Shown here one piece after another: positions 31,827 to 62,769 of a stretch of DNA of 64,000 bases. The translations under genes and the position numbers were made by a program. The first letter of the stretch is position 1, and each line of letters begins with the position of its first letter. Below the pieces are notes generated by a model. It was not told the origin of the DNA. It saw only the letters and a list, made by a program, of their open reading frames with translations, and made no database searches. This stretch comes from Emergencia timonensis (lineage in GTDB: Bacteria > Bacillota > Clostridia > Peptostreptococcales > Anaerovoracaceae): positions 1,054,001 to 1,118,000 of the forward strand of contig NZ_FLKM01000008.1 of assembly GCF_900086585.1 (NCBI RefSeq), written 5' to 3'.

Positions 31827-34184
31827 ATGTTAACAGAAAGGATCGAACGTCTAAATGACAAGGTGAGAAATACGTTTCCAACAATCGACCTGGATCGGGC
31901 TAAGCTGATGACAGAATTCTATAGCAAACCATCCATGGATAATTTTGTTATTCAAAGAGCAAAAGCCTTTGCTTTTTTCCTTGAGAACAAAAAAATCTTT
32001 ATTGATGGGGATTCTCAGATTGTAGGACATGCCGGAGATAAGTTTCAGGCTGTACCACTTCATCCTGAAGCCACCAAATGGTTATACGATGATTTCGATA
32101 CCCTTGACTGCAGAATATCAGATCATCTGAAGTTTGACAGCGAAGAAGAAAAAACAGAATTAAAAGAAATAGTAACTAAGTGGCGGGGACAGACATTCGG
32201 CGATTACGCTTCTTCACTTGAAGCCCCGGACGTTAAAGAGATGCTGGATGCACTGGTATTCACCCACGGTGTTTCAAATCAATCTACGATGAATCACTCC
32301 CCTGATTATGATAACCTGATCAAATTGGGGTACCGCCATTACATTGATGAATGCAAGAAGAATATTGCTGAATTCCAGTGTAATGATGTGTATGATATGG
32401 AAAAGAGGGTGAACTGGGAAGCCATGATTATTGTCATGGAGGCCATCATCAATTTTTCACATCGCTATGCAGACCTTGCCGAAAAGCAGGCCGCAGAATG
32501 TGCGGATGAAAAGAGAAAACAGGAGCTTCTTACCATGGCAGAAAACTGCAGAACTGTTCCGGAACATCCGGCACAGACTTTCCAGCAGGCATGTCAGATG
32601 GTATGGCTTACTCATCTTTGCATCTGCCTTGAAGCAGTAGGCGGAGATCATTGTCTGGGCAGATTTGACCAGTACACTTATCCGTTTTGGCAGAAAGAAT
32701 CTTCGGAAGGAAAAGATGAAGTTTATTTCCAGGAGCTTATTCATGAGTTTAAGCTGAAGGTTGCGGAACTTTGGAATATACGCCAGTATAAGGAATCTAT
32801 TGCAGTTCCCGGCTGTCCGCTCTGGATGCATGTTATGCTTGGCGGCGTCACGGAAGACGGAAAAGATGCATGTAATGAAGTGACTGACATTTTCCTGCGC
32901 TGTTTGCTGAATCTACAGACAGATGAGCCTTGCATATCCTTCCGCTATCATCAGAATGTCAATGAGGAAACTTTTCGCCTTGCAATTAGAGCAGCCAGAG
33001 ACACCGGCGGTCATCCTGCATTCTATAATGATGATTCGGCAATTATCTATCTGCTCAGCCTGGGATTCACACTTAAGGAAGCACGCAACTGGGGTATTTG
33101 CGGATGCATTGAACCGATTGTACTTGGAAAAACTGATTTTCAGAGCAACTCCGGAAACTTTAATACAAATAAGGTTCTTGAAATTGCGCTCCATGATGGT
33201 GTTGACCCATTGACCGGCAAGCAGCTTGGACCAAAGACGGGCAAGGCAGAAGACTTCAAGTGCATAGATGATGTTAAGCGGGCATTTGAAACCCAGCTTG
33301 ATTTCTTCATGGAAAAACTGATTCGAATGCATAATGCCACAATTGGGGCACATGGAGTTATGTTCCCTACCATTACAGCCTCCTGTTTCTCACAGGGTTG
33401 TATTGAAAAGGGTAAAGTGCTTCAGCAAAAAGGTTCGGATCATCACTACACGACGGTTTCCATTGCAAGTATGGCAAATACCATTGACTCCTTCGCTGCA
33501 ATAGAAGAGTGCGTATTTAACAAAAATTACCTGACCATGGGGGAACTGGTTGACCTCCTTGACAGCAATTTTGAAGGGAAGGAAAACATGCGCCAGATGT
33601 TAATTAACAAAGCACCGAAGTTTGGCAATAACATCGAACAGGTGGATAAATATGGATACTATGTAGTTAACACAATAGATGACTCGTTACATAGATTTAA
33701 GGATGCTCATGGTGGACAATGGACAAGTTTACATGCGACAGTTGTATATAATGTCGAGATGGGTAAAAAGGTTGGAGCCCTTCCCGATGGCAGACTTGCA
33801 CATACACCTCTTGCAGACAACGCTTCTCCAATGATTGGTATGGATGTAAACGGTCCCACTGCTGTTGTAAATTCTCTGGCATGTTGTGACGAGATGCTGC
33901 CACAGAGCGGTATGCTTCTGAACCAAAGATTTGATCCGGCAATTGCATCGGGCGAAAAAGGATTGGACATTATTGAAACCGTATTTCGCGCCCACTTCGC
34001 ACAGCACGGTTATCACATTCAGATTAATGTACTGGATGATGAAACCCTTCTTGCAGCACAAAAGGAACCGGACAAATACAAGAATATTGTTGTGCGTGTT
34101 GCAGGTTATTCCGCCTACTTTGTCGAATTGGGCAAGGAAATCCAGGATAATATTATTGCAAGAACCATTCAGAAGGGTCTTTAA
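31827..34184 (+). CDS. hplG: Glycyl radical enzyme GRE3, probable 4-hydroxy-D-proline C-N lyase
   Basis: A 785-residue GRE close to GRE1: Cys427 and Glu429 in GCIEP, Gly760 in RVAGYSAYF, and the same pocket stretch around LGKTDFQSN. The next residues read SGNFNTNKV where GRE1 and GRE4 read PGYFNPIKI, so the pocket is not identical. Ribosome site GGAAAGGAAG. It shares an operon with OrtAB and faces an epimerase, which supports the ring-opening role. No activase gene is in its operon; the nearest is at 36493. Confidence 0.7.
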   Translation: MLTERIERLNDKVRNTFPTIDLDRAKLMTEFYSKPSMDNFVIQRAKAFAFFLENKKIFIDGDSQIVGHAGDKFQAVPLHPEATKWLYDDFDTLDCRISDHLKFDSEEEKTELKEIVTKWRGQTFGDYASSLEAPDVKEMLDALVFTHGVSNQSTMNHSPDYDNLIKLGYRHYIDECKKNIAEFQCNDVYDMEKRVNWEAMIIVMEAIINFSHRYADLAEKQAAECADEKRKQELLTMAENCRTVPEHPAQTFQQACQMVWLTHLCICLEAVGGDHCLGRFDQYTYPFWQKESSEGKDEVYFQELIHEFKLKVAELWNIRQYKESIAVPGCPLWMHVMLGGVTEDGKDACNEVTDIFLRCLLNLQTDEPCISFRYHQNVNEETFRLAIRAARDTGGHPAFYNDDSAIIYLLSLGFTLKEARNWGICGCIEPIVLGKTDFQSNSGNFNTNKVLEIALHDGVDPLTGKQLGPKTGKAEDFKCIDDVKRAFETQLDFFMEKLIRMHNATIGAHGVMFPTITASCFSQGCIEKGKVLQQKGSDHHYTTVSIASMANTIDSFAAIEECVFNKNYLTMGELVDLLDSNFEGKENMRQMLINKAPKFGNNIEQVDKYGYYVVNTIDDSLHRFKDAHGGQWTSLHATVVYNVEMGKKVGALPDGRLAHTPLADNASPMIGMDVNGPTAVVNSLACCDEMLPQSGMLLNQRFDPAIASGEKGLDIIETVFRAHFAQHGYHIQINVLDDETLLAAQKEPDKYKNIVVRVAGYSAYFVELGKEIQDNIIARTIQKGL

Positions 34185-48351: not shown

Positions 48352-48395
48352 TTGACAAATCATACAATTAAACTATAATATGATGTAAGACAACG
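48352..48395 (+). promoter_or_regulatory. Sigma-70 promoter of module D with shared 15-bp motif
   Basis: TTGACA (48352-48357), 16-bp spacer, TATAAT (48374-48379), then TGATGTAAGACAACG at 48381-48395, identical to 5495-5509 before the corrinoid operon. ACAACGTTGT just after is palindromic. The motif sits at the expected start of transcription and is a candidate repressor site. Confidence 0.75.
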
Positions 48396-48447
48396 TTGTT
48401 AAGATAATACAAATAGTTTGTACAAAGAAAGGAGGAAGGCATATTAC

Positions 48448-49647
48448 ATGATAATTTTGACAGCAGAGGCACGCTGCATCAGCTTTTTTCGTCTCAATTA
48501 TCAATATGCGATTTCTAATATGAAGAATTTCAGGTTTTCAACAACAATCAGTGTAGCCGCTGCATTTTGCGCCTACTTCATAGGTTCGGGATTTGCCTCA
48601 GGTCAAGAGGCGCTGCAGTATTTTGCCGCATATGGCGGCATATGGCCGATTTTCATTCCTCTCATCGTATTCGCCTGCTTATGGTTCTTCTGGTCCAAAA
48701 TCGGATATAACTCCTGGGATATTCCAGAAATAGACGCGCCCGCCGATGCCTACGATTACTTCTGCGGATTTAAAGGAGCGGCCAGAGTGGCAGACGTTTT
48801 AACGATTATCATCACTGGACTGTTCAGTTTATCCATGTTTGCAGGATGCGGCGCGACCTTAGAACAGTACTTAGGAATTCCCCAGTGGATTGGCGCTATT
48901 GGGCTGGGTATCATCGCCTACGCCGTCATCTGGTTCGGCCTTGAAAGTGTCACAAATGTACTCAGCTGTGTGGGACTGATTATCATCGGATTTGTCGTAT
49001 TGATCGGTGTCTACTGTTTCGTGGCCCAGGGGCCTGGTGAAATTACAGATGGAGCAGAGAGAATCAGCCAATATGTGGACAACAGCGATGTCTATATCGC
49101 CAGTGTATTCGGGATTAAAAATCCGCTTCTGTCAGGGGCATGGTATTTTGGCACCTTTATCGTAACGGGATACGCCTTTATCGTAGCCCAGGGCAAGCGG
49201 TTCCACAGCTATAAAGAAAGCAACATGGCAGCCCTCTTTTCAGCCATCCTGTTCACCTTAGGCTTATACATGATCACCGGCGCCGTATTAGCCAATATCG
49301 ACCATATCGTTGAGGTCAAAGCACAGATTCCTCTTCTTGCGGTCATCGACAATACGCTGCCTGTGTTACAGCCGGTATTTGCGCTAGTCGTCGTTGCAGG
49401 CATCTTCACAACAATTACAGGCTATTCCTGGACAATTGGAAGGAGATTTGCAAAAGATAAAACGACCAAGCAGAGACTGATCGTCGGCGGTTTGATGATC
49501 ATCGGCATCCTGGGTGGCGCTTTTATCCCGTTCAGCACCTTGGTCAACTGGATTTCACCGGCATCCGGCCTGCTGGGTTTAATTATCGCAGTCTATATGA
49601 CCATAGGCGCAATTGCAAAATCAAAGACCCGCAAAAAAGAGTCATAA
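48448..49647 (+). CDS. YkvI-type membrane transporter of module D
   Basis: A 399-residue membrane protein of the YkvI family (APC-type fold, about ten or more helices); the first helix includes the typical AAFCAYFIGSGFASGQEALQ. The ATG at 48448 follows AAAGGAGGAAGG; an internal ATG at 48520 would also start just before the first helix but has a poor ribosome site. It ends 11 bp before GRE5, so it probably brings in the GRE5 substrate. Transport specificity of this family is unknown. Confidence 0.8.
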   Translation: MIILTAEARCISFFRLNYQYAISNMKNFRFSTTISVAAAFCAYFIGSGFASGQEALQYFAAYGGIWPIFIPLIVFACLWFFWSKIGYNSWDIPEIDAPADAYDYFCGFKGAARVADVLTIIITGLFSLSMFAGCGATLEQYLGIPQWIGAIGLGIIAYAVIWFGLESVTNVLSCVGLIIIGFVVLIGVYCFVAQGPGEITDGAERISQYVDNSDVYIASVFGIKNPLLSGAWYFGTFIVTGYAFIVAQGKRFHSYKESNMAALFSAILFTLGLYMITGAVLANIDHIVEVKAQIPLLAVIDNTLPVLQPVFALVVVAGIFTTITGYSWTIGRRFAKDKTTKQRLIVGGLMIIGILGGAFIPFSTLVNWISPASGLLGLIIAVYMTIGAIAKSKTRKKES

Positions 49648-49658
49648 AGGAGGAAATT

Positions 49659-52025
49659 ATGGTATCTGAAAGAATCAACAGAATGAAAGAAAGACAGAGA
49701 AACACGGTCCCTACGTTCAGTGCAGAAAGAGCCAGGCTGGCCACGGAGGCCTATGAAAAGTTCGGCGGCGAACCCAATGTACTCCTAAAAGCCAAGATGC
49801 TGGACTACATTCTCACCCACATGACCGTCTATATTGATGACGACGATCTGATTGCTGGCAATTATACGGACCGCCCGCGGTGCGCGCCGATTTTCCCGGA
49901 ATTCGCATCCCAGTGGATTTTGGACGAGATTGATACCTTTACCACCAGAACCCTTGATAAGATGGCGGCAGAAGACGGCATGAAAGAAGAAGTCATTGAG
50001 ATCTTAAAACGCTGGGAAGGAAAATCCTTTGATGAAGTTACCGCAGGGGTGTGCAGACCAGAAGCCATTGAAGCGATGAACTCCGGCATCCTTTCCATCG
50101 GCGGTCTGGAAACCAGTACAGGCCATATTCTGCCTAACTATTTCCGTCTCTTTGACGGCGGTCTTGCCGGTGCCATCGAAGACTGCGAGAAGAACATCAA
50201 AGAAACAAAGGTAGCGAGAAAAGAAGAGCAGGAAAAGGTGGATTTCTGGAATGCCGTCATCATTTCCTGCAGGGCCTGCATCAAATTTGCCAACAGGTTT
50301 TCTGTGCTGGCGAAAGAGATGGCCGCAGCAGAAACCGATGAGCAGAGAAAACAGGAGCTGCTGGTTATGAGTGAAAACTGCGCCACGGTGCCGGAAAACA
50401 GCCCGCAGACTTTCTGGCAGGCCATCCAGTTCGTCTGGTTTATCCACATCACCCTCTGGATTGAAAGCAACGGACACGCTAATTCCTTCCCTGTATTTGA
50501 CCGTCTGATCAACCCGCTCTACATAAAGGATCTGCAGGACGGCAAGGTGACAGAGAGAGAAGCGTTGGATATCCTGGAATGTTTCTTTATTAAAAACACA
50601 GACATCCTGAAACTGAGAAACGCTTTCTTCAGTGAAAGCTGGGCTGGCTATCCCGTCTGGCAGAACATGATTATCGGCGGCATCGGTGCAGACGGAAAGG
50701 ATGCCTGCAATGAGGCTACCATGCTTCTTCTCAAAGCAAATGAAGAAGTACAGACCTCACAGCCGACCATGTCTTTGCGCTATCACAGGCACATGTCAGA
50801 GGAAGTATTCGACAAGGCCATTTCCATGATACAGAAAGGATTGGCTACGCCAGCCTTTTTCAACGACCATCTCTGTATCCCTCTCGTTCTGGCAAAGAGT
50901 GATGGAATCAATATTGAAGATGCCAGGAACTGGGGGGTTATGGGCTGCGTACAGCCCATGGTTGCCGGAAAATCCGACGGAAGAGCCCAGGTGGGTACGG
51001 TCAATCTGCTCAAATGTATTGAGTTTGCTATGCACGACGGTTTTGATCCGCAGACAGGCAAACAGACTGGTCCACACACCGGAAAGTTTGAAGACTTCGC
51101 CTCTTATGAAGATTTTTTCCAGGCCTTCCTGATTCAGGTGGATCACTCCTTCGATTTAATGATCAACGCTTACAATTCTGTAACAGCGATTCATGCGATC
51201 CGTCAGAATATGCCGTTCGCCTCCATGTGTGTGGACGACTGTATCGGCAAAGGGACGACGCTGCAGCAGGGCGGTGCCAAGTACAGCTATTCCGGCGCTT
51301 TGGCCGATGGGCTTGCAAACGCCATCGACTCCCTGGCCGCTGTGAGAAAGTTCGTATTTGAGGACAAGGTCATTACGCCGCAGGAACTGCTGACCGCCTG
51401 CGATAACGATTTCGCAGATGAAGTTCTGAGACAGAAGCTGCTCAACAAAGGACCGAAGTATGGCAACGACATCGATGAGGTGGATTTCATCGGACATTTG
51501 ATTATCAAACACATCAATGAGATGATTTCTGACTACAGAGACAGCCGCGGCGCCAGATTCTGCTTTGACATCGAGTCTCAATCCTACAATATCGTACAGG
51601 GCAAATGTGTGGGCGCCACGCCGGACGGCCGTAAGGCCTTTGCACCACTGGGTGACAACGTTTCACCAGTCATGGGCAGGGATGTCAACGGACCGACGGC
51701 AACCGTTCTGTCTGTTGCAAAGATCGATCAGTTCTACACCACAGACGGAACCCTGTTCAACATCCGCTTCGACCCGAGATCCATCGCTGGAGAGAAGGGC
51801 AAAGACGTCCTGGGCGGCGTGGTAAAGACTTACTTTGACAACTATGGTGAGCACATTCAAATCAACGTGGTATCCGACGAAACCTTGCGTGAGGCGCAGA
51901 AACATCCAGAGGAGTATAAGAACCTCTTAGTCAGAGTGGCGGGATATTTAGCTTACTTTACAGAGCTGGATCAGAGCGTGCAGGACAACATCATCGCCCG
52001 TACCCTGCATTGCTGTGATTGTTAA
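49659..52025 (+). CDS. Glycyl radical enzyme GRE5 with Gln in place of catalytic Glu
   Basis: A 788-residue GRE with radical Gly762 in RVAGYLAYF and thiyl Cys430 in GCVQP. The Glu two residues after the cysteine, present in the other four GREs here and in 1,2-eliminase GREs such as CutC, HypD and diol dehydratases, is Gln432. The pocket segment MVAGKSDGRAQVGTVN is also unlike the others, and the protein ends in HCCDC. It is linked to its own activase (52040) and to B12 mutase genes. Reaction unknown; a plain Glu-dependent elimination is not expected. Ribosome site AAGGAGG. Confidence 0.85.
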   Translation: MVSERINRMKERQRNTVPTFSAERARLATEAYEKFGGEPNVLLKAKMLDYILTHMTVYIDDDDLIAGNYTDRPRCAPIFPEFASQWILDEIDTFTTRTLDKMAAEDGMKEEVIEILKRWEGKSFDEVTAGVCRPEAIEAMNSGILSIGGLETSTGHILPNYFRLFDGGLAGAIEDCEKNIKETKVARKEEQEKVDFWNAVIISCRACIKFANRFSVLAKEMAAAETDEQRKQELLVMSENCATVPENSPQTFWQAIQFVWFIHITLWIESNGHANSFPVFDRLINPLYIKDLQDGKVTEREALDILECFFIKNTDILKLRNAFFSESWAGYPVWQNMIIGGIGADGKDACNEATMLLLKANEEVQTSQPTMSLRYHRHMSEEVFDKAISMIQKGLATPAFFNDHLCIPLVLAKSDGINIEDARNWGVMGCVQPMVAGKSDGRAQVGTVNLLKCIEFAMHDGFDPQTGKQTGPHTGKFEDFASYEDFFQAFLIQVDHSFDLMINAYNSVTAIHAIRQNMPFASMCVDDCIGKGTTLQQGGAKYSYSGALADGLANAIDSLAAVRKFVFEDKVITPQELLTACDNDFADEVLRQKLLNKGPKYGNDIDEVDFIGHLIIKHINEMISDYRDSRGARFCFDIESQSYNIVQGKCVGATPDGRKAFAPLGDNVSPVMGRDVNGPTATVLSVAKIDQFYTTDGTLFNIRFDPRSIAGEKGKDVLGGVVKTYFDNYGEHIQINVVSDETLREAQKHPEEYKNLLVRVAGYLAYFTELDQSVQDNIIARTLHCCDC

Positions 52026-52039
52026 AACGGAGCGACATC

Positions 52040-52960
52040 ATGAATAGTAAAGAATTGATCGGCGGCATACAGCGGTTTTCCACCGAAGACGGCCCCGGAA
52101 TCCGCACCACGGTGTTTTTTAAGGGATGCCCTCTGCGCTGTAAATGGTGCCATAATCCGGAACTGATAGATTATGACTTTACACTCCTATACACAGGCAA
52201 TCAATGCATTGCCTGTGGCGAGTGCAGCGGCATATGCTCGGAAAAAGCTATCACCATGGGAAGTGATGGAGTCCACATTGATCGAAAGCAGTGCAAAAGA
52301 TGCGGAAAATGCGCAGACAATTGCTGCACAGGTGCACTGCGGCTTGTAGGCATGCGTAAGACCGATGACGAACTGCTGTCTTTGCTGACCAAGGACAAAG
52401 GGTTTTATGCGGAGACGGGAGGTGGTATCACCTTCAGCGGAGGCGAGGTCACTAGTCAGACGGCCTACGCTCAGCGACTTTTAGAAAAGTGCCGGGCAGC
52501 GCATCTGGATGTTGCCATCGATACCTGCGGCTATTGTGGTTATGAACCGCTGCGAAATCTGTGTCAGGGTGCCAACACCGTGCTCTTTGATTTAAAGTGC
52601 ATGGATGAAGCGCGGCATAGAGAGTTGACCGGGGTAAACAATAACATGATTTTGGAAAATCTGGAAAAGCTAAGCCGCCTGCCCGATGTCCATGACAAAA
52701 TCATCATCAGGCTGCCGCTGATTCACGGATTAAATGATGGGGAAAGGGATATGGAGGCCATCTGCCGTCTCCTGCATGACCTTGACCTGAAAAATGTTGA
52801 CGGTCTGCCTTATCACAGTCTCGGAGTTGCCAAAGGGAGAAATATAGGTGAACCTATGACAGAGTTTGAGACACCGTCAGAAACGCATCTTGACCAGATT
52901 GTGTCTTGGTTTCAGGCGGAGAGCATCGAGATTCGCATCATGGGCAGAGACAAAAAATAG
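52040..52960 (+). CDS. GRE activating enzyme, module D
   Basis: A 306-residue radical SAM activase: CPLRCKWC for the SAM cluster, complete ferredoxin motifs CIACGECSGIC and CKRCGKCADNC, and GGITFSGGEV. The usual proline after GGE is valine. Start at 52040, 14 bp after the GRE5 stop, with ACGGAGCG; an ATG upstream overlapping GRE5 is less likely. It should install the radical on GRE5. Confidence 0.92.
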   Translation: MNSKELIGGIQRFSTEDGPGIRTTVFFKGCPLRCKWCHNPELIDYDFTLLYTGNQCIACGECSGICSEKAITMGSDGVHIDRKQCKRCGKCADNCCTGALRLVGMRKTDDELLSLLTKDKGFYAETGGGITFSGGEVTSQTAYAQRLLEKCRAAHLDVAIDTCGYCGYEPLRNLCQGANTVLFDLKCMDEARHRELTGVNNNMILENLEKLSRLPDVHDKIIIRLPLIHGLNDGERDMEAICRLLHDLDLKNVDGLPYHSLGVAKGRNIGEPMTEFETPSETHLDQIVSWFQAESIEIRIMGRDKK

Positions 52961-52970
52961 AGGGAATCTT

Positions 52971-54344
52971 ATGAGGTATACACTTTGTGTTGACTTTGGC
53001 AGCACTTTTACGAAGCTCTGCGTTCTTGATTTAGAGAATGGGGAACTGGTCATGACCACAAAACGTCCTACGACGGTGGAAACTGACGCCAAAATCGCCC
53101 TTCTTGCCTGTCTTGCAGAGGCGAAAAGTTATGTGGGAGAAAAAGGCGTGAAAGATGGACGGATCATCACCAGCAGCAGTGCAGCTGGAGGCCTTAGAAT
53201 GGTAGTAGTGGGACTGACCAAGCGATTCAGTCTCTTGGCAGGAAAAAACGTGGCTTTAGGTGCAGGCGCTAGAATCATCAAAACCTATGAAAATAATCTG
53301 ACCGCAGATGACGTGGGTGAAATAGAACAGATCAATCCAGAGATTCTTCTTCTCTGCGGCGGTATCGAGGGGGGGAATACGGACCGGATTTTACACAATG
53401 CCAGAATGCTGAAGAGGGCAGATGTGTCCTCCTACGTGGTCTATGCAGGCAACCAGGAAATCGCTTCTTATATCAGGCAGGAGCTGGTCAACAGTTCCAT
53501 TTCCTGTTATATAGCAGAAAACGTATTCCCGGCATATGGGCAGCTCAACGGCGCGCCGGCAGGAGAAATCATCAGGCAGCTGTTTATGGAACGGATTGTA
53601 GGGGCCAAAGGCTTGGCATCAGCCTTTTCCATCATCGGTCGGGTAGTGATGCCGACACCGGCGGCAGTGCTGGCCGGCGGTCAATTGCTCTCACGGGGAA
53701 CTGCCTTTGATGCAGGGGTTGGCGGCTTGATGGTCTTCGATGTGGGCGGAGCTACGACGGATGTGTATTCTTATTTGGAGGAGAATACATCCGCCGCCAA
53801 ACATATCGGTTCACCGGAGCCCTTTGCCAAAAGAACGGTGGAGGGGGATTTAGGAGTCAGATCTTCTTGTCTCTCTCTGATGGAAGCTATGAAAATTTCT
53901 GGCAAGGCAGAAATAGCAGAACAAGAACTGCAGGCTTGCTGTAAGAAAAGAGCCGAAGCACCCACCTATGTGCCGGATAACGAAATGCAGAGGAAGATTG
54001 ATTTGATCTTAGCAGAAGGGGCAGTGGAGATCAGCGCCCGCAGGCACTGCGGCAAAGCCACCAACGCTTATGCCAGAAATGTCTGTGAGGCGATAGAAGG
54101 AAAAGACCTGCGCGAAATCAACGGCATAATCGGTACGGGCGGCCCCCTCATTCACAGCCGCAATCCGGCGGAAGTCCTGCGCAAAGCCATCGGCAGACCA
54201 GCGGAAAAGGAACTGCTGCTGCCCAAGGAAAGCAAATTTTATCTTGATAAACGGTATATTTTATATGCCATAGGACTCTGTGCCGATATCAATCCGGCCA
54301 GCGCGCTGCATATTGCAAAAGAAAATATCGTGGAAATAAATTGA
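52971..54344 (+). CDS. GlmL/MutL-family ASKHA protein, B12 mutase accessory
   Basis: A 457-residue member of the family typified by GlmL, encoded between the subunits of clostridial glutamate mutase. Both ATPase phosphate loops are visible: DFGSTFTKLCVLDL at the N-terminus and FDVGGATTDVYS in the middle. Such proteins probably reactivate or chaperone adenosylcobalamin mutases. Start at 52971, 10 bp after the activase stop; the ribosome site AGAGGGA is modest. It precedes the fused mutase by 10 bp. Confidence 0.85.
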   Translation: MRYTLCVDFGSTFTKLCVLDLENGELVMTTKRPTTVETDAKIALLACLAEAKSYVGEKGVKDGRIITSSSAAGGLRMVVVGLTKRFSLLAGKNVALGAGARIIKTYENNLTADDVGEIEQINPEILLLCGGIEGGNTDRILHNARMLKRADVSSYVVYAGNQEIASYIRQELVNSSISCYIAENVFPAYGQLNGAPAGEIIRQLFMERIVGAKGLASAFSIIGRVVMPTPAAVLAGGQLLSRGTAFDAGVGGLMVFDVGGATTDVYSYLEENTSAAKHIGSPEPFAKRTVEGDLGVRSSCLSLMEAMKISGKAEIAEQELQACCKKRAEAPTYVPDNEMQRKIDLILAEGAVEISARRHCGKATNAYARNVCEAIEGKDLREINGIIGTGGPLIHSRNPAEVLRKAIGRPAEKELLLPKESKFYLDKRYILYAIGLCADINPASALHIAKENIVEIN

Positions 54345-54354
54345 GGGAAAGAGA

Positions 54355-56109
54355 ATGAAAACATATTCAAAACAGGATTTCATCACTGCGGATTTTCCGT
54401 CCTTGCAGGAGATGAAGGTACAAGCGGCGGAAATCAGCAAAGACTGGCAGTACGGACAAACTGCATTCTGCCGAGAGCGGGGCGTTTCATCAGAGAGAGC
54501 GTTCAAAGAACAGTGTAAGGCGGAGAACAGGATCTCCAGACACGCCGCCATCGGTTATCATTCAGTGACGGAAACCTGCAGTGCCATGAAGTGGCTCTAT
54601 GAGGAATTAGATAAGAAGGGCTGCACCTTAGACCGAGTGGGCATACTTTTGGATGTTTCCATGGGTATCGCAGATGAATATAAGGATCATGCTATGGTCG
54701 GTTCAGGGCTTGTGCTTTGCAGCGAAGAGGAGTGGGCGGCCTTGGGACAGGCAGCGCCGCTGATGATTCATTTTGGCGACAACATGATCGGCTCTCTGCG
54801 CAGTCTTGAAAACCTCAAATTGGCCTTTCAAGCAGGGGCGACATCGGTGGGGAATTTTTCGCAGTATTTCAGCTACAGCTATCCCTTTCAATACGATAGG
54901 AACAAACGAACCCTGGATGCCTGTCTGGCCATCTGCATCATGGGGCAGAACAAAGAAAAGGGCATGGTGATGCATTCCAATTTGGATGACGGCTTTGCCG
55001 CAGCCTTTAACGACTTGGTTACGGTTCTGGCATGGGCCAAGGTCGAAAAATATCTGGCAGAGGATTTGATGGGGGCAAAGCTGGGCCATTGTTTCGGAAA
55101 TCTGTTCAGCAGTCCCATTCTGCGCCTGACTTTCTCAATGGCACTGGATGAAATCAACGAAGGGGATTCCTGCGGCACCATGATTTACGGAAATACCACG
55201 GATTACACCAAGGATTTTGTCAGAAACAATGCCGTAGTAAACGGCTATATCATCGGTGACATGATCGGCCAGATTCACAAACCTACCGGCCACGCCATGA
55301 GTTCGGTGCCGGTATCAGAGGCGGCGAGAATTCCCACCAAAGAAGAAATTTTGGATGCCCAAATCATGAGTAACGAAATCGAACGCTACGCCAGAGCTTT
55401 TGAACCCTATATCAACTGGACTAAGGTTGAAAAAGATAAGCAATTGCTGCTGCAGGGGGCCGAGGCGGTCTTTGATAATATCATGGAAGGTCTGGCAGAT
55501 ATGGGTATCGATATGAAAAATCCGGCAGAGATTATGATTACCTGCAAGGAGCTGGGACCGGAGTACCTGGAACGGGCTTTTGGTCTGGGGGAGCCGACTG
55601 ACGAATACGCAAATGGCAGAAGACCCATCTGGCCCACAGATATGGTGTGCAGCTTGGAAAAGATTCAGAACCAGTGCTTGCAGAATTTTGATCCGCAGAA
55701 GTCCGACCTAAAGGGACTGAAAGTAATTCTCTGTGCTACAGACATTCACGAATTTGGCAAGGTGGTCGTGGGCAACGTCCTGCGCAGATCCAATGCCGAA
55801 ATCTTTGACATCGGAAGGGACGCCAGTCCTGGCGAAGCCGCTGAAATGGCCTTGGAAACGGACAGCCGTGTGATTTTGGTCAGCTCCTATAATGGAATCG
55901 CCAGAACCTTCGCCAAGACCTTGCTGCGGGAAATGGACCGCTTGGGTATCGAGGCGGAGATTTTTATGGGCGGCCTGCTCAATGAAAATGACGAAGGCGG
56001 CAATATTCCTGTTGACGTCACAGAGGAACTGGAGGCCATGGGCATACACTGTGTGAAGGAGGCAGAATGCCTGCCTGCAGAAATCAAGAAAGTCTTTGCA
56101 GTACGGTAA
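54355..56109 (+). CDS. Fused GlmE/GlmS-like adenosylcobalamin-dependent mutase
   Basis: A 584-residue protein. Residues about 1-440 resemble the TIM-barrel catalytic subunit of glutamate mutase (GlmE), although shorter. Residues about 455-580 form a B12-binding domain with the base-off His motif DIHEFGKVVVGN and later SSYNG and MGGLLNENDEGG. In classical glutamate mutase these are two separate proteins. It should carry out a carbon-skeleton rearrangement, but the substrate cannot be read from sequence; 3-methylaspartate formation, or a rearrangement of the GRE5 product, are candidates. Start after GGGAAAGAG. Confidence 0.8.
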   Translation: MKTYSKQDFITADFPSLQEMKVQAAEISKDWQYGQTAFCRERGVSSERAFKEQCKAENRISRHAAIGYHSVTETCSAMKWLYEELDKKGCTLDRVGILLDVSMGIADEYKDHAMVGSGLVLCSEEEWAALGQAAPLMIHFGDNMIGSLRSLENLKLAFQAGATSVGNFSQYFSYSYPFQYDRNKRTLDACLAICIMGQNKEKGMVMHSNLDDGFAAAFNDLVTVLAWAKVEKYLAEDLMGAKLGHCFGNLFSSPILRLTFSMALDEINEGDSCGTMIYGNTTDYTKDFVRNNAVVNGYIIGDMIGQIHKPTGHAMSSVPVSEAARIPTKEEILDAQIMSNEIERYARAFEPYINWTKVEKDKQLLLQGAEAVFDNIMEGLADMGIDMKNPAEIMITCKELGPEYLERAFGLGEPTDEYANGRRPIWPTDMVCSLEKIQNQCLQNFDPQKSDLKGLKVILCATDIHEFGKVVVGNVLRRSNAEIFDIGRDASPGEAAEMALETDSRVILVSSYNGIARTFAKTLLREMDRLGIEAEIFMGGLLNENDEGGNIPVDVTEELEAMGIHCVKEAECLPAEIKKVFAVR

Positions 56110-56196
56110 ATGTCTCGACGGCGGAAATAAATCCACTTGTAAAAACCAACTGAATATGTAATAATTTCAGTAGTAATACAATTGGAGGGAAATAAT

Positions 56197-56877
56197 ATGT
56201 TGGATAAGCGAAGCCTGACAGATCAGACCATAAAAGAGCTTACGGAGATGATTACTGTGAAACAGACCTACAAGCCTGGAGACAAGCTGCCTAATGAATT
56301 GGTGTTGGCGGAAGAACTGGGGGTAAGCAGAACCACCCTTAGAGACGCGATTACTTATTTATCGTCAATCAATGTTCTCGAGCGAAAACGAGGAAAAGGG
56401 ACCTTTGTCATCGATAATGAGGCGTTACACGACGACTATGGCTTTAATGACTTGAATTTTCTGCAGGTAAAGCTGAAGGATCTGTATGAGGTACGCTTGA
56501 TTGTAGAGCCGGAAATGACAGCCATCGCAGCCAGAAAAGCCACTGACGAGGACCTGCAGAAAATTATTAAATATACGAAACTGATTGAAGCATCACCGGA
56601 AGAGGGTGACTTCACAGCAGATATGAATAAAAAGTTCCACAATGCAATTGCATTGGCAACTCACAATGAATTTATTATCAGACTGTATGAGAACATCAGT
56701 ACGGCCACGGTGAAGGCTTTCAACGAAGAGAGCATCATCCAGAAAAACGATGAAGTACTCGTGATGAGCCACAGCATGATAACGGAGATGATGAAGTGCA
56801 GGGATGCGGAAGGCGCCAAGCTGGCAATGCGGCTCCACATCAAGCAGTCGATAGATTTTTATAATCTGAAGATCTAG
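56197..56877 (+). CDS. GntR-family (FadR/FCD) transcriptional regulator
   Basis: A 226-residue regulator with an N-terminal winged HTH (KLPNELVLAEELGVSRTTLR) and a C-terminal FCD ligand domain with conserved His residues for a metal site. Start at 56197 after TTGGAGGGA. It lies inside module D and most likely represses it until an acid ligand is present. A good candidate operator is the motif at 48381-48395. Confidence 0.92.
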   Translation: MLDKRSLTDQTIKELTEMITVKQTYKPGDKLPNELVLAEELGVSRTTLRDAITYLSSINVLERKRGKGTFVIDNEALHDDYGFNDLNFLQVKLKDLYEVRLIVEPEMTAIAARKATDEDLQKIIKYTKLIEASPEEGDFTADMNKKFHNAIALATHNEFIIRLYENISTATVKAFNEESIIQKNDEVLVMSHSMITEMMKCRDAEGAKLAMRLHIKQSIDFYNLKI

Positions 56878-56907
56878 TGGGACTATGAAAATAAACGGAG
56901 GACAGAC

Positions 56908-57726
56908 ATGAAAAAAGTAGACAAAAGAATCGTATTTTACGGCGGCGGCAAAATGGCCGAAAGCATCATCAGAGGATTGCTGGGGAACGATACCCTGAAT
57001 CCTGAAAACATAACCGTGGGAGAGATGATTCCCGCCCGCTGCAGCTACCTGACTGATACTTATGGAATTACGGCAGTTACCGATGCATCGGAGGCAATCA
57101 AAGCGGCTGATATGGTACTTGTAGGCGTCAATCCGCCGCAGATTTCCAGTGTCACCAGCATACTGAAAACGATTCTGCGTTTGGATACCATCGTGCTGTC
57201 TTATGCCTGCGGTGTTGCAATCAGTGTTTTCGAGGAGCAGTTAGGCAGTGATAAAAAAATCGTGCGCATCGTGCCTAACACCCTCAGTCAGTCTGGCAAC
57301 GGGTATTCGCTGGCTCACAGTAATGAAAACCTCAGCGAGGACGATAAAGCTTTCGTCGACCAGTTGCTCCAGGGCCTTGGAAAGGTCCTCTATATGGAGG
57401 AAAGCAAGTTCGACAGCTTTCAGGGATATGGCTGTACGGGACCGCTTTGGGTATACAAATTTATAGAAGCGATGATTGACGCTGGCATTTATGTGGGTTT
57501 TACCCGCGCAGAGGCCCGGGAGCTGATTCTCGAAAATATGCTGGGTGTCGTGAAGGTTCTGCAGGAAACGGGGGCTTCTCCTACAGCCAAGATTGAAGAG
57601 CTGACTTCTCCCGGCGGCGTGACCATCGAAGCGCTGAGGGTCCTGCAGGAAAACGGCAGTTATCTGACGCCTACCATCGCATCTATGGAGGCGGCCGTAA
57701 AGAAATGTGCAATTGTGGCATCGTAA
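56908..57726 (+). CDS. ProC-like reductase, module D
   Basis: A 272-residue pyrroline-5-carboxylate reductase family protein with the loop YGGGKMAESI, the segment GVNPPQI and the signature LTSPGGVTIEAL. It is diverged from the ProC at 23956. Its place between a regulator and a dehydrogenase-like gene in a catabolic operon suggests reduction (or oxidation in reverse) of a cyclic or acyclic imine from the GRE5-mutase route, rather than proline biosynthesis. Ribosome site ACGGAGGA. Confidence 0.85.
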   Translation: MKKVDKRIVFYGGGKMAESIIRGLLGNDTLNPENITVGEMIPARCSYLTDTYGITAVTDASEAIKAADMVLVGVNPPQISSVTSILKTILRLDTIVLSYACGVAISVFEEQLGSDKKIVRIVPNTLSQSGNGYSLAHSNENLSEDDKAFVDQLLQGLGKVLYMEESKFDSFQGYGCTGPLWVYKFIEAMIDAGIYVGFTRAEARELILENMLGVVKVLQETGASPTAKIEELTSPGGVTIEALRVLQENGSYLTPTIASMEAAVKKCAIVAS

Positions 57727-57741
57727 GATGAGGAGCATAGA

Positions 57742-58629
57742 ATGAAAAAATTTGATTTATTAGTGATGGTTGACAATACCGGCATTGCAGAGTTTGCTTT
57801 GCCGGCGCTGGAGTTGTCGGCCGAACAGGTGGTCTGCTATGAAGATTTCCCTTCTGACCAGGAAACCATCTTACGGCGGATTCAGGAAGCGGACGCTGTG
57901 CTGGTATCCTGGAACACGGTTTTGACGAAAGAAACTCTTTCTCAATGCCATAAACTGCGTTACGTCGGTCTGTGCTGTACTTATTTTAACGAAGCTTCCT
58001 GCAACGTGGACATTCCCTGCTGCAGAGAAAAGGGCATTACTGTGACGGGAGTCAGCCATTATGGCGATTACGGCGTAGCAGAGTACGTCATCAGTGAGTT
58101 GATTCAAGTGGTAAAGGGCTTGGGTCCCATTTCCCTTTATGAGGAACAGAGAGAACTGCGCCATATGAAACTGGGCATCATCGGCCTGGGCACGGTGGGG
58201 ACCATGATTGCAGAGGCGGCGGCATTTTTCGGCATGGAAGTGGCCTATCACAACCGAACAAAAAAAGCAGACTGCCCGTATCCGTATATGGAGAAGGCAG
58301 ATTTGCTTAGCAGCAGTGATGTGATTTTGACCAGCATTCCGAGAAACCAGATTGTCATGGAAAAAGAAGACTTTGACCAGATGGGAAAGCTTTTTATCAA
58401 TGTGGGAGTAGGGCCATCCTTCAATCTGGAGGCCTTTGCGCATTGGATTGCAGCGGGAAATTACGCAATTCTCGACGCAGGATCGATTCACAAGGAATAC
58501 CGCCAGTGGTACAGAGAGCAAGAACGAATCGTGCTTGCTGACCGGGTGGCGGGGTTCACCTATAACGCCCGTCAGCGTCTGGCAGAGAAGGCCGTTAAGA
58601 ATATCAAAGATTTTCTCGACACAGAATAA
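57742..58629 (+). CDS. D-2-hydroxyacid dehydrogenase-like protein without usual catalytic residues
   Basis: A 295-residue protein with the NAD-binding domain of D-2-hydroxyacid dehydrogenases (GIIGLGTVGTMIAEAAAFFG). Where the family has the substrate arginine in INTARG this protein has INVGVG, and where it has the catalytic His in TPHIAG it has ADRVAG followed by FTYNAR. The usual dehydrogenase chemistry is therefore unlikely. It may bind NAD to do something else or act on an imine partner. Last gene of module D, 15 bp after ProC, ended by the terminator at 58653. Confidence 0.75.
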   Translation: MKKFDLLVMVDNTGIAEFALPALELSAEQVVCYEDFPSDQETILRRIQEADAVLVSWNTVLTKETLSQCHKLRYVGLCCTYFNEASCNVDIPCCREKGITVTGVSHYGDYGVAEYVISELIQVVKGLGPISLYEEQRELRHMKLGIIGLGTVGTMIAEAAAFFGMEVAYHNRTKKADCPYPYMEKADLLSSSDVILTSIPRNQIVMEKEDFDQMGKLFINVGVGPSFNLEAFAHWIAAGNYAILDAGSIHKEYRQWYREQERIVLADRVAGFTYNARQRLAEKAVKNIKDFLDTE

Positions 58630-58652
58630 AGTAAAAGCTCCTATTTTTTAAG

Positions 58653-58701
58653 AACGCGGCAGAAGGTGCGGTGAGAAACTGTACCTTCTGCCGCGTTTTT
58701 A
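58653..58701 (+). terminator. Terminator of module D
   Basis: A 15-bp perfect stem AACGCGGCAGAAGGT / ACCTTCTGCCGCGTT followed by TTT. Further on, 58813-58838 holds a second hairpin GAACTAGT/ACTAGTTC without a T-run; the rest up to 58966 is AT-rich and featureless. Confidence 0.9.
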
Positions 58702-59829: not shown

Positions 59830-60045
59830 ATGGCAAAAGGAAAAGTAGAAATTAGAGCAGAGAGCTGCAAGAGCTGTGGCTATTGCGTCAAATTCTGCCC
59901 TAAAAACGTACTCGCAATTGGCGACAAAGTTAATTCAAAAGGCTATCAGTATGTTGTTGCGGCAAATCCGGATGATTGCATCGGCTGCGCTTCATGCGGT
60001 GTCGTATGTCCAGACGCAGCAATTGAGGTTTATAGGGAGGTTTAG
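59830..60045 (+). CDS. 2-oxoacid:ferredoxin oxidoreductase, ferredoxin-like delta subunit
   Basis: A 71-residue 2[4Fe-4S] protein with CKSCGYCVKFCP and CIGCASCGVVCP. It passes electrons from the TPP subunit to ferredoxin. Ribosome site TAGGAGG; first gene of a tight four-gene operon (3-bp gap to the next). Confidence 0.93.
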   Translation: MAKGKVEIRAESCKSCGYCVKFCPKNVLAIGDKVNSKGYQYVVAANPDDCIGCASCGVVCPDAAIEVYREV

Positions 60046-60048
60046 AAA

Positions 60049-61128
60049 ATGGCAAGAGTATTTATGAAAGGCTGTGAAGCGATTGCAGAAGCAGCTGTTA
60101 GAGCAGGTTGCAGGTTCTTCGCCGGCTACCCGATTACACCACAGAACGAAATTCCGGAATACTTCTCAAGAAGAATGCCGGAAGTTGACGGCGTTTTCGT
60201 ACAGGGCGAAAGTGAAGTTGCATCCGTAAACATGCTTTATGGTGCAGTGCAGACTGGAACTAGATCCATGAGTTCCTCTTCAAGTACAGGTATCAGCCTT
60301 TACAGCGAAGGCGTATCCTATTGTGCGGGAGCACGTTTACCGATCGTTTATGTAAACGTAGGCAGAGGAGGCCCTGGTATCGGCGCAATCCAGCCGGCGC
60401 AGCAGGATTATCTGCAGGCGACAAAAGCCTCCGGTAACGGCGGTTTTGAAATGATCGTCCTTTCACCGTCCACCGTACAGGAAGCGGTCGATATGACTTA
60501 CGAAGCATTTGATCTTGCTGAAAGAGACAATAACCCTGTATTGGTATTGACTGACGGCGTCATGGGTACGATGATGGAGCCGGTTGAACTTCCTCCTATG
60601 AAAACTGCAGAAGAAGTTGCTGCTATGAAGGAAGCACGCCGCAGCGTGTCTGCAGTCGGACATAAGCCTGAAGAACAAGTGAGAATTCTTCCGGGTGGTG
60701 TTGGCGGCAGTTTTGAGCCTGTCAATATCGCTGCTGCTGAATTATATAAATCATGGGTAGACAAGGACGTCAGAGTGGAAGAAATCATGCTGGATGATGC
60801 AGAAATCGTTTTAACTGCTTATGGCATTTCCGGACGTATTGCAAAAGTAGCAGTTAAGGAACTGAGAGCAGAAGGAATCAAGGCCGGAATGATTAGACCG
60901 ATTGCGATTCATCCGTTCCCTTACAAGTCTTATGAAAACCTCGACTTTGACAGAGTAAAGGGCATTCTGGATGTAGAAATGTCCATTCCGGCGCAGATGG
61001 TATGGGATATCGACCATGCTGTTCATGGAAGATGTCCGATCAAAGAATGTCTGCGTTCAGGCGGAGAACTCATGACTAAAGAAAGAGTTTTGAGAGCTGC
61101 TCGTGAACTGGCAAAGGAGGTATTATAA
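60049..61128 (+). CDS. vorB: 2-oxoacid:ferredoxin oxidoreductase, alpha subunit (VorB type)
   Basis: A 359-residue alpha subunit with the pyrimidine-binding segment FFAGYPITPQNEIPEYFSRR and GESEVASVNMLYGA. Length and subunit order (delta-alpha-beta-gamma) fit 2-ketoisovalerate- or 2-oxoglutarate-type enzymes that make acyl-CoA and reduced ferredoxin. In an amino acid fermenter this would oxidise keto acids from branched-chain amino acids. Its stop overlaps the next start by one base. Confidence 0.88.
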   Translation: MARVFMKGCEAIAEAAVRAGCRFFAGYPITPQNEIPEYFSRRMPEVDGVFVQGESEVASVNMLYGAVQTGTRSMSSSSSTGISLYSEGVSYCAGARLPIVYVNVGRGGPGIGAIQPAQQDYLQATKASGNGGFEMIVLSPSTVQEAVDMTYEAFDLAERDNNPVLVLTDGVMGTMMEPVELPPMKTAEEVAAMKEARRSVSAVGHKPEEQVRILPGGVGGSFEPVNIAAAELYKSWVDKDVRVEEIMLDDAEIVLTAYGISGRIAKVAVKELRAEGIKAGMIRPIAIHPFPYKSYENLDFDRVKGILDVEMSIPAQMVWDIDHAVHGRCPIKECLRSGGELMTKERVLRAARELAKEVL

Positions 61129-61877
61129 TGGAGAAGGTATATAAGAGAACCATTGGTATCAAGCCAGATGCAGTATCTGGTTTCTGCCCTGGCTGCATGC
61201 ACGGAACGATTCATAAGCTCATCGGTGAAGTTTCTGAGGAATTGGGCATGCTGGAGAAATTAGTCCGCTGCGAAGGCGTAGGCTGCTGCGGATTGGGACA
61301 GTTATATGTAAGTCACGACCTGAACATCTCTGCACACGGAAGAGCTTGTGCAGTAGCGACAGGTCTCAAGAGAACCAGCCCGGAATCACTGGTTTATACA
61401 TATCAGGGAGACGGCGACCTGGCATCCATCGGACTGGGCGAAACCGTTTCTGCTGCAAACAGAGGTGAAAACTTTACTGTCATTTTCGTCAACAACGGAA
61501 TTTACGGCATGACTGGCGGACAGATGGCGCCGACGACTTTGATCGGCATGAAAGCTACTACTGCACCAAAGGGCAGAGACCCGAAGGAACACGGTTATCC
61601 GATCCACATGTGCGAAGTGCTGAACCAGCTGACAGCTCCTTACTATCTCGAGAGAACTTCCTGCAACACGCCGGGCAACGTTCGCAAGACCAAAGCTGCC
61701 ATCAAAAAGGCGTTCCAGTATCAGATGGAAGGAAAAGGTTTCTCCATGGTAGAAATCGTCACTTCCTGTCCGACAAACTGGGGTCTCAACGAAGCAAAGG
61801 CGCTGGACTTCTTAGAAACGGATATGCTGAAGGAATTCCCTCTGGGAGTATTCAGAGATAAGGCGAAGGAGGAATAA
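61128..61877 (+). CDS. 2-oxoacid:ferredoxin oxidoreductase, beta (TPP) subunit
   Basis: A 249-residue TPP-binding subunit with the motif GDGDLASIGLGE...NNGIYGMTGGQ and the cluster cysteines in FCPGCMHG and CEGVGCCGLG. It decarboxylates the 2-oxoacid on thiamine diphosphate. The ATG overlaps the stop of the alpha subunit (TAATG), with GGAGG just upstream. Confidence 0.92.
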   Translation: MEKVYKRTIGIKPDAVSGFCPGCMHGTIHKLIGEVSEELGMLEKLVRCEGVGCCGLGQLYVSHDLNISAHGRACAVATGLKRTSPESLVYTYQGDGDLASIGLGETVSAANRGENFTVIFVNNGIYGMTGGQMAPTTLIGMKATTAPKGRDPKEHGYPIHMCEVLNQLTAPYYLERTSCNTPGNVRKTKAAIKKAFQYQMEGKGFSMVEIVTSCPTNWGLNEAKALDFLETDMLKEFPLGVFRDKAKEE

Positions 61878-61879
61878 TC

Positions 61880-62431
61880 ATGGAAAGAAATTTACTTGTT
61901 GCCGGATTCGGCGGACAGGGTGTCATGATGCTGGGAACTCTTTTGGCAACAGCAACCTGCGAATCAACAGATAAACACGTTACCTATTTCCCATCCTATG
62001 GCGCTGAGATGCGTGGAGGAACAGCGAACTGCTATGTCGTCATTTCTGACGACGAAATCGGTGCGCCGGTTATGGAAGCCATGGAAGACATGATCGTCAT
62101 GAACGACCCTTCCCTGCACAAATTCCTTCCAAAACTGAAAGAGGGCGGAACCCTGTTCATCAACAGCTCCATCGTAAAATCAAAGATCGATAGAGACGAC
62201 ATCACAGTTGTAGAGGTGCCTGTAACGGAAATGGCTCTGGAGATGGGGAATCCAAAGGTGCTGAACATCATCATGCTCGGTGCATACATCGGATATACTG
62301 AAGTCGTTTCTGAAGACGTCATCTTAGAGGGCATCAGAAACAAAATCGGTAAGAAAAAACCACAGCTGCTTCCACTGAACGAAGAGGCTTATGCAAAAGG
62401 CCTTGCAATCGGAAAAGCTGCTAGAAAATAG
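61880..62431 (+). CDS. 2-oxoacid:ferredoxin oxidoreductase, gamma subunit
   Basis: A 183-residue gamma subunit with the characteristic AGFGGQGVMMLGTLLA and SYGAEMRGGTANC motifs, the CoA-binding region. Ribosome site AAGGAGG. Last gene of the operon, terminated at 62449-62474. Confidence 0.93.
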   Translation: MERNLLVAGFGGQGVMMLGTLLATATCESTDKHVTYFPSYGAEMRGGTANCYVVISDDEIGAPVMEAMEDMIVMNDPSLHKFLPKLKEGGTLFINSSIVKSKIDRDDITVVEVPVTEMALEMGNPKVLNIIMLGAYIGYTEVVSEDVILEGIRNKIGKKKPQLLPLNEEAYAKGLAIGKAARK

Positions 62432-62597: not shown

Positions 62598-62611
62598 AAA
62601 ACCAGAATTGA

Positions 62612-62769
62612 AGATTGGGTAAACCTGTCGAAAGGCAGCGACACAAAGCTATAGGGCCTTCCCTTTTACGGATGGCAGCCAGTTGCACAGATTATTTGAG
62701 TTTGTTCATAGATGAATGAAGTCTGTTTTATTGCGCAAAAAGAGCATGTGCCGTGGCCATGCTCTTTTA
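62612..62769 (+). promoter_or_regulatory. Cyclic di-GMP-I (GEMM-I) riboswitch with terminator platform
   Basis: The aptamer (about 62612-62690) shows the GEMM-I hallmarks in order: GGTAAACC, the CGAAAGG tetraloop region, CAGCGACACAAAGC, TATAGGG, and GGATGGCAGCCAGTTGCAC. A strong hairpin AAAAGAGCATG...CATGCTCTTTT (62737-62769) follows and ends in T-rich sequence, the likely expression platform. The next gene starts 23 bp later. Known GEMM-I switches of this layout control surface and motility genes. Confidence 0.92.

What the first reader, a model, noticed from the sequence alone, without database searches (positions are those of the whole stretch)
48352..58701. Module D: a GRE linked to an adenosylcobalamin-type mutase, possible undescribed pathway
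One gene set, all on one strand with mostly 10-40 bp gaps, holds a transporter, GRE5, its activase, a GlmL-like protein, a fused GlmE/GlmS-like mutase, a GntR regulator, a ProC-like reductase and a D-2-hydroxyacid dehydrogenase-like protein. I know of no described pathway that combines a glycyl radical enzyme with a B12 carbon-skeleton mutase and a ProC. A reasonable reading is that an imported amino acid or cyclic imino acid is attacked by GRE5, rearranged by the mutase and then reduced.
Basis: partly seen in the sequence, partly recalled or inferred. Interest (0 to 1): 0.9.

Follow-up and report, generated by a model that had tools for sequence, protein, structure and literature searches.

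The report
Glycyl-radical plus B12-mutase amino-acid operon
A clostridial bacterium carries one gene set that pairs two different radical-enzyme systems, a glycyl radical enzyme and a vitamin-B12 mutase of a family not covered by the curated mutase models; the pairing recurs in distant bacteria, and the set is predicted to break down an amino acid, likely related to proline or hydroxyproline, by a route that would be new.

The parts
48352..48379 (+). sigma-70-type promoter, TTGACA-16-TATAAT
   Evidence: 12/12 consensus match, only such site of 22
48448..49647 (+). importer (TRP), YkvI-family membrane protein, LeuT/APC fold
49659..52025 (+). glycyl radical enzyme GRE5, 788 aa
   Evidence: PF02901+PF01228, TIGR01774 over cut-off; best PDB glycerol dehydratase 1r8w 623 bits and HplG 7vua 608 bits
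50946..50954 (+). GRE5 Cys loop Cys430-Val431-Gln432 (CXQ in place of CXE)
   Evidence: CXE rule and E436Q loss of activity in HypD from PMC7077986 passages
50976..50984 (+). Asp440-Gly441-Arg442 (DGR), shared by the 10 fetched GREs at 47% identity or more; Trp follows the Gly in glycerol/diol dehydratases
51942..51944 (+). Gly762 of RVAGY, the glycyl radical site
52040..52960 (+). GRE-activating radical SAM enzyme
   Evidence: TIGR02494 311.3/174.35; PF04055
52971..54344 (+). GlmL/MutL-family protein, predicted mutase reactivase
   Evidence: TIGR01319 352.7/204.05, NF040745 463.4/475; PF13941 453.5 bits
54355..56109 (+). fused adenosylcobalamin mutase (MUT), 584 aa: TIM-barrel domain about residues 12-437, B12 domain about 451-584
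55741..55758 (+). DxHxxG cobalamin-binding motif Asp463-His465-Gly468
   Evidence: invariant in 44 of 44 sequences
56182..56877 (+). GntR/FCD regulator
   Evidence: PF00392, PF07729
56908..57726 (+). ProC-like reductase
   Evidence: TIGR00112 188.1/196.75; SPGGVT loop
57742..58629 (+). 2-hydroxyacid-dehydrogenase-like protein
   Evidence: PF00389, PF02826; a relative lies in 5 of the 8 MUT-linked loci of this GRE clade, this one included
58653..58697 (+). intrinsic-terminator-like hairpin, 20-pair stem

Best explanation
One transcription unit joins an importer, a glycyl radical enzyme with its activase, and an adenosylcobalamin mutase with its GlmL partner to a ProC-like reductase, and it is predicted to convert an imported amino acid through the radical enzymes, likely in that order, into glutamate semialdehyde/pyrroline-5-carboxylate, which ProC would reduce to proline. 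Shown by calls: gene content, the promoter- and terminator-like limits, the recurring GRE-GlmL-mutase link, the wide mutase-ProC link, the glutamate-mutase fold, CXQ in place of CXE in GRE5. Inferred: a pocket unlike glutamate mutase's, that the GRE feeds the mutase, that the mutase product is a straight C5 amino acid with oxygen at C5, and that proline is the end product. The inference about the product rests on convergence: in one gene set the mutase partners ProC (closing a C5 semialdehyde to proline); in another it partners aminotransferase, 2-oxoacid:ferredoxin oxidoreductase and 4-hydroxybutyryl-CoA dehydratase, which would take a 5-oxygenated C5 amino acid to 4-hydroxybutyryl-CoA and crotonyl-CoA. 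Thirteen polar residues of the barrel domain are invariant over members of both sets, which suggests one reaction.
For: GRE-first: 5 of 5 GREs at 49% or more (own genome, two in G177, G434, G855) have MUT 1.6-10.1 kb away, with GlmL. Eight fetched loci of the clade (window, L161, L162, L165, L127, L129, L170 at 49% or more; L164 at 47%; 9 GREs) have MUT and GlmL within about 13 kb, but four of them (L161, L162, L164, L165) were reached through MUT. At least 11 exact contig-length coincidences, matched by eye, between the 120 listed MUT hits and 120 listed GRE hits. ProC family within 10 kb of MUT in 46 of 80 loci and within 350 bp in 23, L074 and L105 (Asgard archaea) included; 40 of 58 ProC-labelled ORFs keep [ST].GG.T. 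Permease-ProC-racemase-GntR-GlmL-MUT sets in Levilactobacillus L039 and Pelethocola L064; the L039 genome gave no GRE candidate. Own-genome copy L119: Pro_racemase, GRE with HplG-like Cys loop, GlmL, MUT, OrtA, OrtB, ProC. 4HB-CoA dehydratase of L050 577 bits to 1u8v; 3-hydroxybutyryl-CoA dehydrogenase and thiolase beside MUT in L070. H63, D100, H139, D142, N167, H207, N209, D211, D212, N280, H313, E322, R325 invariant in 44 of 44.
Against: No substrate is shown for either enzyme. The window's MUT groups with aminotransferase/DUF362-linked mutases, not with the other ProC-linked ones (its own branch is long, 0.94), so ProC here may be a separate recruitment. ProC is in only 3 of the 8 MUT-linked loci of the GRE clade, and the window's copy falls just under the ProC cut-off (188.1/196.75); a recalled P5CR signature pattern matched only 4 of 58 ProC-labelled ORFs and not the window's. 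A GRE is within 10 kb of MUT in only 4 of 80 loci, and a phylum draw of 398 genomes held the GRE clade in the own genome alone. At 47% identity one of two GREs has no MUT within 20 kb. GRE5 lacks the eliminase Glu, and the same change (E436Q) kills HypD, so its reaction may not be an elimination. Known relatives of the fold move carbon or amino groups; none moves oxygen (recalled). Two GRE subtypes sit beside one mutase in G177, so the GRE product need not be the mutase substrate.
Confidence: 0.35

Rival explanations
1. The GRE and the mutase are parallel, not serial: each makes the same intermediate (P5C/glutamate semialdehyde) from a different imported amino acid, and the downstream genes are shared.
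For: At one locus in four genomes of one genus (Eubacterium by contig match of L171 to L050) the cassette NhaC-type transporter + activase + GRE is present in L129 and L170 and absent in L171 and L172, with the other labelled genes kept; the cassette brings its own transporter. Own genome: IlvD-like + AspDH-like genes stand beside MUT in L120 and near a GRE in L121.
Against: In the window GRE, activase, GlmL and MUT are packed with 10-14 bp gaps under one promoter-like site, and there is one importer.
Confidence: 0.27
2. The ProC-linked mutases are AdoCbl counterparts of HypD: they shift or remove the hydroxyl of a (D- or L-) hydroxyproline to give P5C, which ProC reduces; module D is a variant in which GRE5 first makes that hydroxy acid.
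For: Pro_racemase-family genes (MCGH and DRSPCGTG, Cys/Cys, in 12 of 14 clustered), OrtAB and HplG-like GREs beside several MUT copies; MUT-ProC beside genes annotated proline racemase, aldehyde dehydrogenase, FAD oxidoreductase and DapA in Phyllobacterium (a hydroxyproline-catabolism-like set, recalled); precedent of B12/GRE pairs for the same reaction (PMC8473912, passages); no HypD over cut-off in the own genome.
Against: HypD over cut-off in 6 of 20 MUT-bearing genomes, three of them of the same genus (G006, G007, G011), so MUT does not simply replace HypD; no fold relative does this chemistry (recalled); the Phyllobacterium racemase showed no MCGH-type motif in my scan.
Confidence: 0.18
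3. MUT is a carbon-skeleton mutase like glutamate mutase with an aldehyde or alcohol in place of the side-chain carboxylate (3-methylaspartate semialdehyde or 4-hydroxyvaline to glutamate semialdehyde or 5-hydroxynorvaline).
For: Closest fold is GlmE; the carboxylate-binding arginines appear replaced, as expected if a carboxylate is lost.
Against: No gene nearby explains where the branched substrate comes from; proline racemases beside some ProC-linked copies point to a ring substrate.
Confidence: 0.13
4. Ordinary glutamate fermentation (methylaspartate pathway) with a divergent glutamate mutase.
For: Fold and GlmL partner.
Against: No PF06368 match; own genome lacks PF06368 although 11 of 61 genomes have it over the cut-off, and G004, G006, G007, G011 have both it and MUT; no methylaspartase among the labelled genes of the unit.
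Confidence: 0.02

Closest known systems
HypD pathway (trans-4-hydroxy-L-proline dehydratase + P5C reductase)
   Same: GRE with activase near a P5C reductase; proline as product (PMC7077986 passages)
   Different: GRE5 scores 555.5/1100 for HypD, has CXQ not CXE, and a B12 mutase with GlmL lies between
HplG pathway (trans-4-hydroxy-D-proline C-N lyase, then OrtAB thiolase; pathway recalled)
   Same: GRE of similar length; other modules of this window and MUT loci L119/L125 contain GREs with an HplG-like Cys loop, OrtAB and Pro_racemase
   Different: GRE5 is only 608 bits to 7vua (window GRE at 31827: 1334 bits) with another pocket motif; no OrtAB or racemase in module D
Glutamate mutase GlmES + GlmL
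   Same: TIM-barrel + B12 domain folds, DxHxxG, GlmL-family partner
   Different: fused; no PF06368; aligned substrate residues Arg149->His139 and Glu171->Asn167 (alignment by eye, GlmE numbering recalled)
Lysine 5,6- and ornithine 4,5-aminomutase
   Different: no lysine shown at the PLP site position (11 after the cobalamin His)
Alkylsuccinate synthase + MCM-type mutase (alkane oxidation; recalled)
   Same: GRE product rearranged by a B12 mutase
   Different: CoA-ester chemistry and hydrocarbon substrate; here amino-acid-type enzymes and no CoA mutase

Membership tests
GRE eliminase | PFL-like and Gly_radical domains, glycyl site | tested here: met
   (RVAGY)
GRE eliminase | CXE motif (PMC7077986) | tested here: not met
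   Cys430-Val-Gln432
HypD | NF043068 cut-off 1100 bits | tested here: not met
   555.5 bits
HplG | orthologue-level similarity to 7vua and its TDFQ stretch after the Cys loop | tested here: not met
   607.6 bits against 1334.3 for the window GRE at 31827; SDGR in place of TDFQ
Glutamate mutase subunit E | PF06368 | tested here: not met
   no hit; hhalign against PF06368 members gave no meaningful alignment (Prob 0.3)
Glutamate mutase subunit E | fold | tested here: met
Glutamate mutase subunit E | arginine claw Arg66/100/149 and Glu171 | tested here: inconclusive
   motif alignment by eye puts His139 at 149, Asn167 at 171 and Ala/His/Gln at 66; Arg100 not placed; no residue-by-residue superposition; numbering recalled
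AdoCbl mutase, base-off/His-on | DxHxxG in a C-terminal B12 domain | tested here: met
   44 of 44
PLP-dependent aminomutase (KamDE/OraE) | PLP lysine in the B12 domain | tested here: not met
   Leu at the position 11 after His465 in the window; the five commonest residues (43 of 44 sequences) are L, V, M, C, I; Lys629 of OAM seen, its offset recalled
GlmL family | TIGR01319 cut-off | tested here: met
   352.7/204.05
P5C reductase ProC | TIGR00112 cut-off | tested here: not met
   188.1/196.75; domains and SPGG.T loop present
Any of these | catalytic activity | not testable with these tools
   -

The most novel reading that the evidence does not exclude
This is a modular two-radical pathway: an ancient AdoCbl mutase subfamily, found from Clostridia and Levilactobacillus to Alphaproteobacteria and Asgard archaea, makes P5C from hydroxyproline-type or related amino acids and is the oxygen-tolerant counterpart of HypD, while interchangeable glycyl radical cassettes (DGR clade, some with CXQ and so with non-eliminase chemistry) plug extra amino acids into it.
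Probability: 0.17. Interest if true: 0.92.

Novelty: new variant of a known kind. Interest (0 to 1): 0.72.

Why it matters
It would add an uncharacterised AdoCbl mutase subfamily, widespread in aerobes and anaerobes, to the few known B12 rearrangements; show a GRE and a B12 mutase serving one amino-acid pathway; and give a GRE clade in which many members lack the eliminase Glu, a lead to new GRE chemistry. It also makes a testable link to collagen-derived hydroxyproline use by gut and food bacteria.

Tried and rejected
Glutamate mutase/methylaspartate pathway: rejected on PF06368 and own-genome absence. HypD or HplG membership of GRE5: rejected on scores. Replacement of HypD by MUT as a strict rule: not supported, 6 of 20 MUT genomes have HypD over the cut-off. 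PLP aminomutase: no lysine shown at the site. B12 riboswitch in the unit: none (window and four loci, 144,000 bases, one Rfam hit, a c-di-GMP-I riboswitch at 62608). Viral contigs for MUT: no match. hhalign of MUT against GlmE gave no useful alignment, so residue matches rest on motif alignment by eye. Phylum scan of 398 genomes found the GRE clade only in the own genome, so the trait is rare and counts are small. A recalled P5CR signature pattern fitted 4 of 58 ProC-labelled ORFs, a looser loop 40 of 58. Paper searches: among the listed results, which are capped, I saw no description of a GRE-B12-mutase amino-acid pathway or of this mutase subfamily; the library is open-licence only, and the HplG paper was not among the listings. 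Papers used: PMC7077986, PMC8473912, PMC4413051, PMC11528403, passages only.

Limits of the counts: one search listed 120 of 200 and 120 of 286 hits; one search kept 80 of 279 loci; context labels come from profile HMMs built here from ORF clusters (E 1e-8, 40 bits), not from curated models; contig ends cut some flanks. Tree: 99 loci, 2 without MUT, 10 near-duplicates and 1 fragment dropped, 86 rows, quick method. Loci L163, L167, L168, L169 were fetched and not analysed.

Full report
Observation. The eight genes are there, on one strand and tightly packed (starts refined and the ORF translations). Family searches confirm the labels except for the mutase, which matches no mutase model over a cut-off and no PDB sequence at E 0.001.

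What the GRE is. GRE5 has the glycyl site and the activase, is about equally related to B12-independent glycerol dehydratase and HplG (623 and 608 bits), and passes no equivalog cut-off, HypD included. Its Cys loop reads CVQ. The HypD paper (PMC7077986, passages) states that CXE is conserved in GRE eliminases and that E436Q abolishes HypD activity. The 10 fetched GREs at 47% or more all have DGR after the Cys loop, where glycerol dehydratase has GW and HplG FQ; a few database hits at 49-53% do not (P0200, P0205, P0212). Two subtypes occur beside MUT: CVQ (window, L161, L162, second GRE of G177; L165 is of this type with CVE) and CVE with NGHSIG (L129, L170, L127, L164).

Is the link conserved? 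GRE-first: among 391 Clostridia genomes, GREs at 49% identity or more occur in 3 (own, G177, G434) and MUT in 4 (those and G189); the 4 such GREs lie 1.6-10.1 kb from MUT, with GlmL beside it. G855, found in a scan of 40 genomes of G434's family, makes 5 of 5. A 47% GRE of the own genome is 20.9 kb from the nearest MUT; two 44-45% GREs of G010 have none in the 16-19 kb fetched; two 40-41% GREs (G126, G438) were not fetched. In a phylum draw of 398 only the own genome has the clade. Of the 8 MUT-linked loci in hand (7 at 49% or more, L164 at 47%), MUT and GlmL lie within about 13 kb of the GRE, ProC is in 3 (window, L061/L161, L164), DUF362 in 5, a 2-HADH in 5; four loci (L161, L162, L164, L165) were reached through MUT, so they cannot count as tests of the link. 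L164/L044, a MAG labelled Planctomycetaceae, repeats most of module D: importer, GRE, activase (other strand), GlmL, MUT, GntR, ProC.

The mutase is the core. Of 80 genome loci, 46 have a ProC-family gene within 10 kb and 23 within 350 bp; GlmL is adjacent in 27, a GRE within 10 kb in 4. The ProC neighbours include Heimdall- and Hodarchaeota (L074, L105), many Alphaproteobacteria, and Levilactobacillus (L039), whose genome gave no GRE candidate. The MUT tree has an anaerobe half (mostly with GlmL) and a half of mostly Proteobacteria with Chloroflexota and Asgard archaea; ProC occurs in both; the window's MUT, on a long branch, sits with L037/L038, which have DUF362 or 2-HADH and no ProC. In 40 genomes of G434's family MUT is in 4 and the GRE clade in 2 of those 4; the labelled locus is the same in all four except for a transporter-activase-GRE cassette between the 2-HADH and SNF genes. 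The genus is Eubacterium because L171 and L050 (E. callanderi FD) share contig length and genes. So the GRE reads as an optional front end.

What it likely does. Two downstream sets meet at one kind of product. Set one: ProC, in several anaerobes with proline-racemase-family genes and in some with a GRE of HplG-like Cys loop and OrtAB (L119, L125, L047; L054 without GRE on its contig). Set two: aminotransferase, 2-oxoacid:ferredoxin oxidoreductase, 4-hydroxybutyryl-CoA dehydratase (577 bits to 1u8v), in various subsets, and in L070 3-hydroxybutyryl-CoA dehydrogenase and thiolase. A C5 amino acid with oxygen at C5 suits both: glutamate semialdehyde closes to P5C for ProC, and its alcohol, after transamination and oxidative decarboxylation, gives 4-hydroxybutyryl-CoA. 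Since the polar residues are invariant over members of both sets, one reaction is the simplest reading. This is inference; no call shows a substrate. Whether the GRE feeds the mutase or enters beside it is open, and the cassette result suits both.

Known pieces and novelty. GRE plus P5C reductase is the HypD pathway; GRE and B12 enzymes are known as counterparts for the same reaction (PMC8473912, passages) and, recalled, in series in alkane oxidation. Ten paper searches listed nothing that I could see on this mutase subfamily or on a GRE-B12-mutase amino-acid pathway. I file it as a new variant of a known kind, with a bolder reading kept open. HypD in 6 of 20 MUT genomes, three of the same genus, speaks against MUT as a plain HypD substitute.

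Noticed in passing
window 14972-42842: Other modules of the window are hydroxyproline-type: three Cys/Cys Pro_racemase-family genes, two OrtB genes (808.8 and 783.5 bits, cut-off 550) each after an OrtA-like gene, and four GREs, the one at 31827 at 1334 bits to HplG.
   Followed up: partly
G000 (whole genome): 16 PF01228 matches over the cut-off (one weak, 24.4 bits) and 4 MUT copies in one 4.66 Mb genome; none of the matches to the HypD model passes its cut-off.
   Followed up: partly
window 59830-62431: A 2-oxoacid:ferredoxin oxidoreductase set (ferredoxin-like, VorB-type alpha 412/399, beta, gamma) starts 1.2 kb downstream, beyond the terminator; such an enzyme is a neighbour of MUT in Eubacterium and G177.
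   Followed up: partly
window 62608-62690: c-di-GMP-I riboswitch (53.8 bits, gathering 35).
   Followed up: no
L120:8580-11047 and L121:10014-13436: IlvD-like and aspartate-dehydrogenase-like genes stand beside MUT+ProC+Pro_racemase in one own-genome locus and near a DGR-type GRE in another; they may build the amino acid that these enzymes use.
   Followed up: partly
L071, L075, L101, L106, L108, L111: A gene of one cluster, PhyH-family dioxygenase in the member tested (L111), lies next to or near MUT-ProC in six proteobacterial loci.
   Followed up: partly
L053:7148-8548, L051:1549 onward: A second, shorter and diverged MUT-like gene beside an SDR gene near the full MUT.
   Followed up: no
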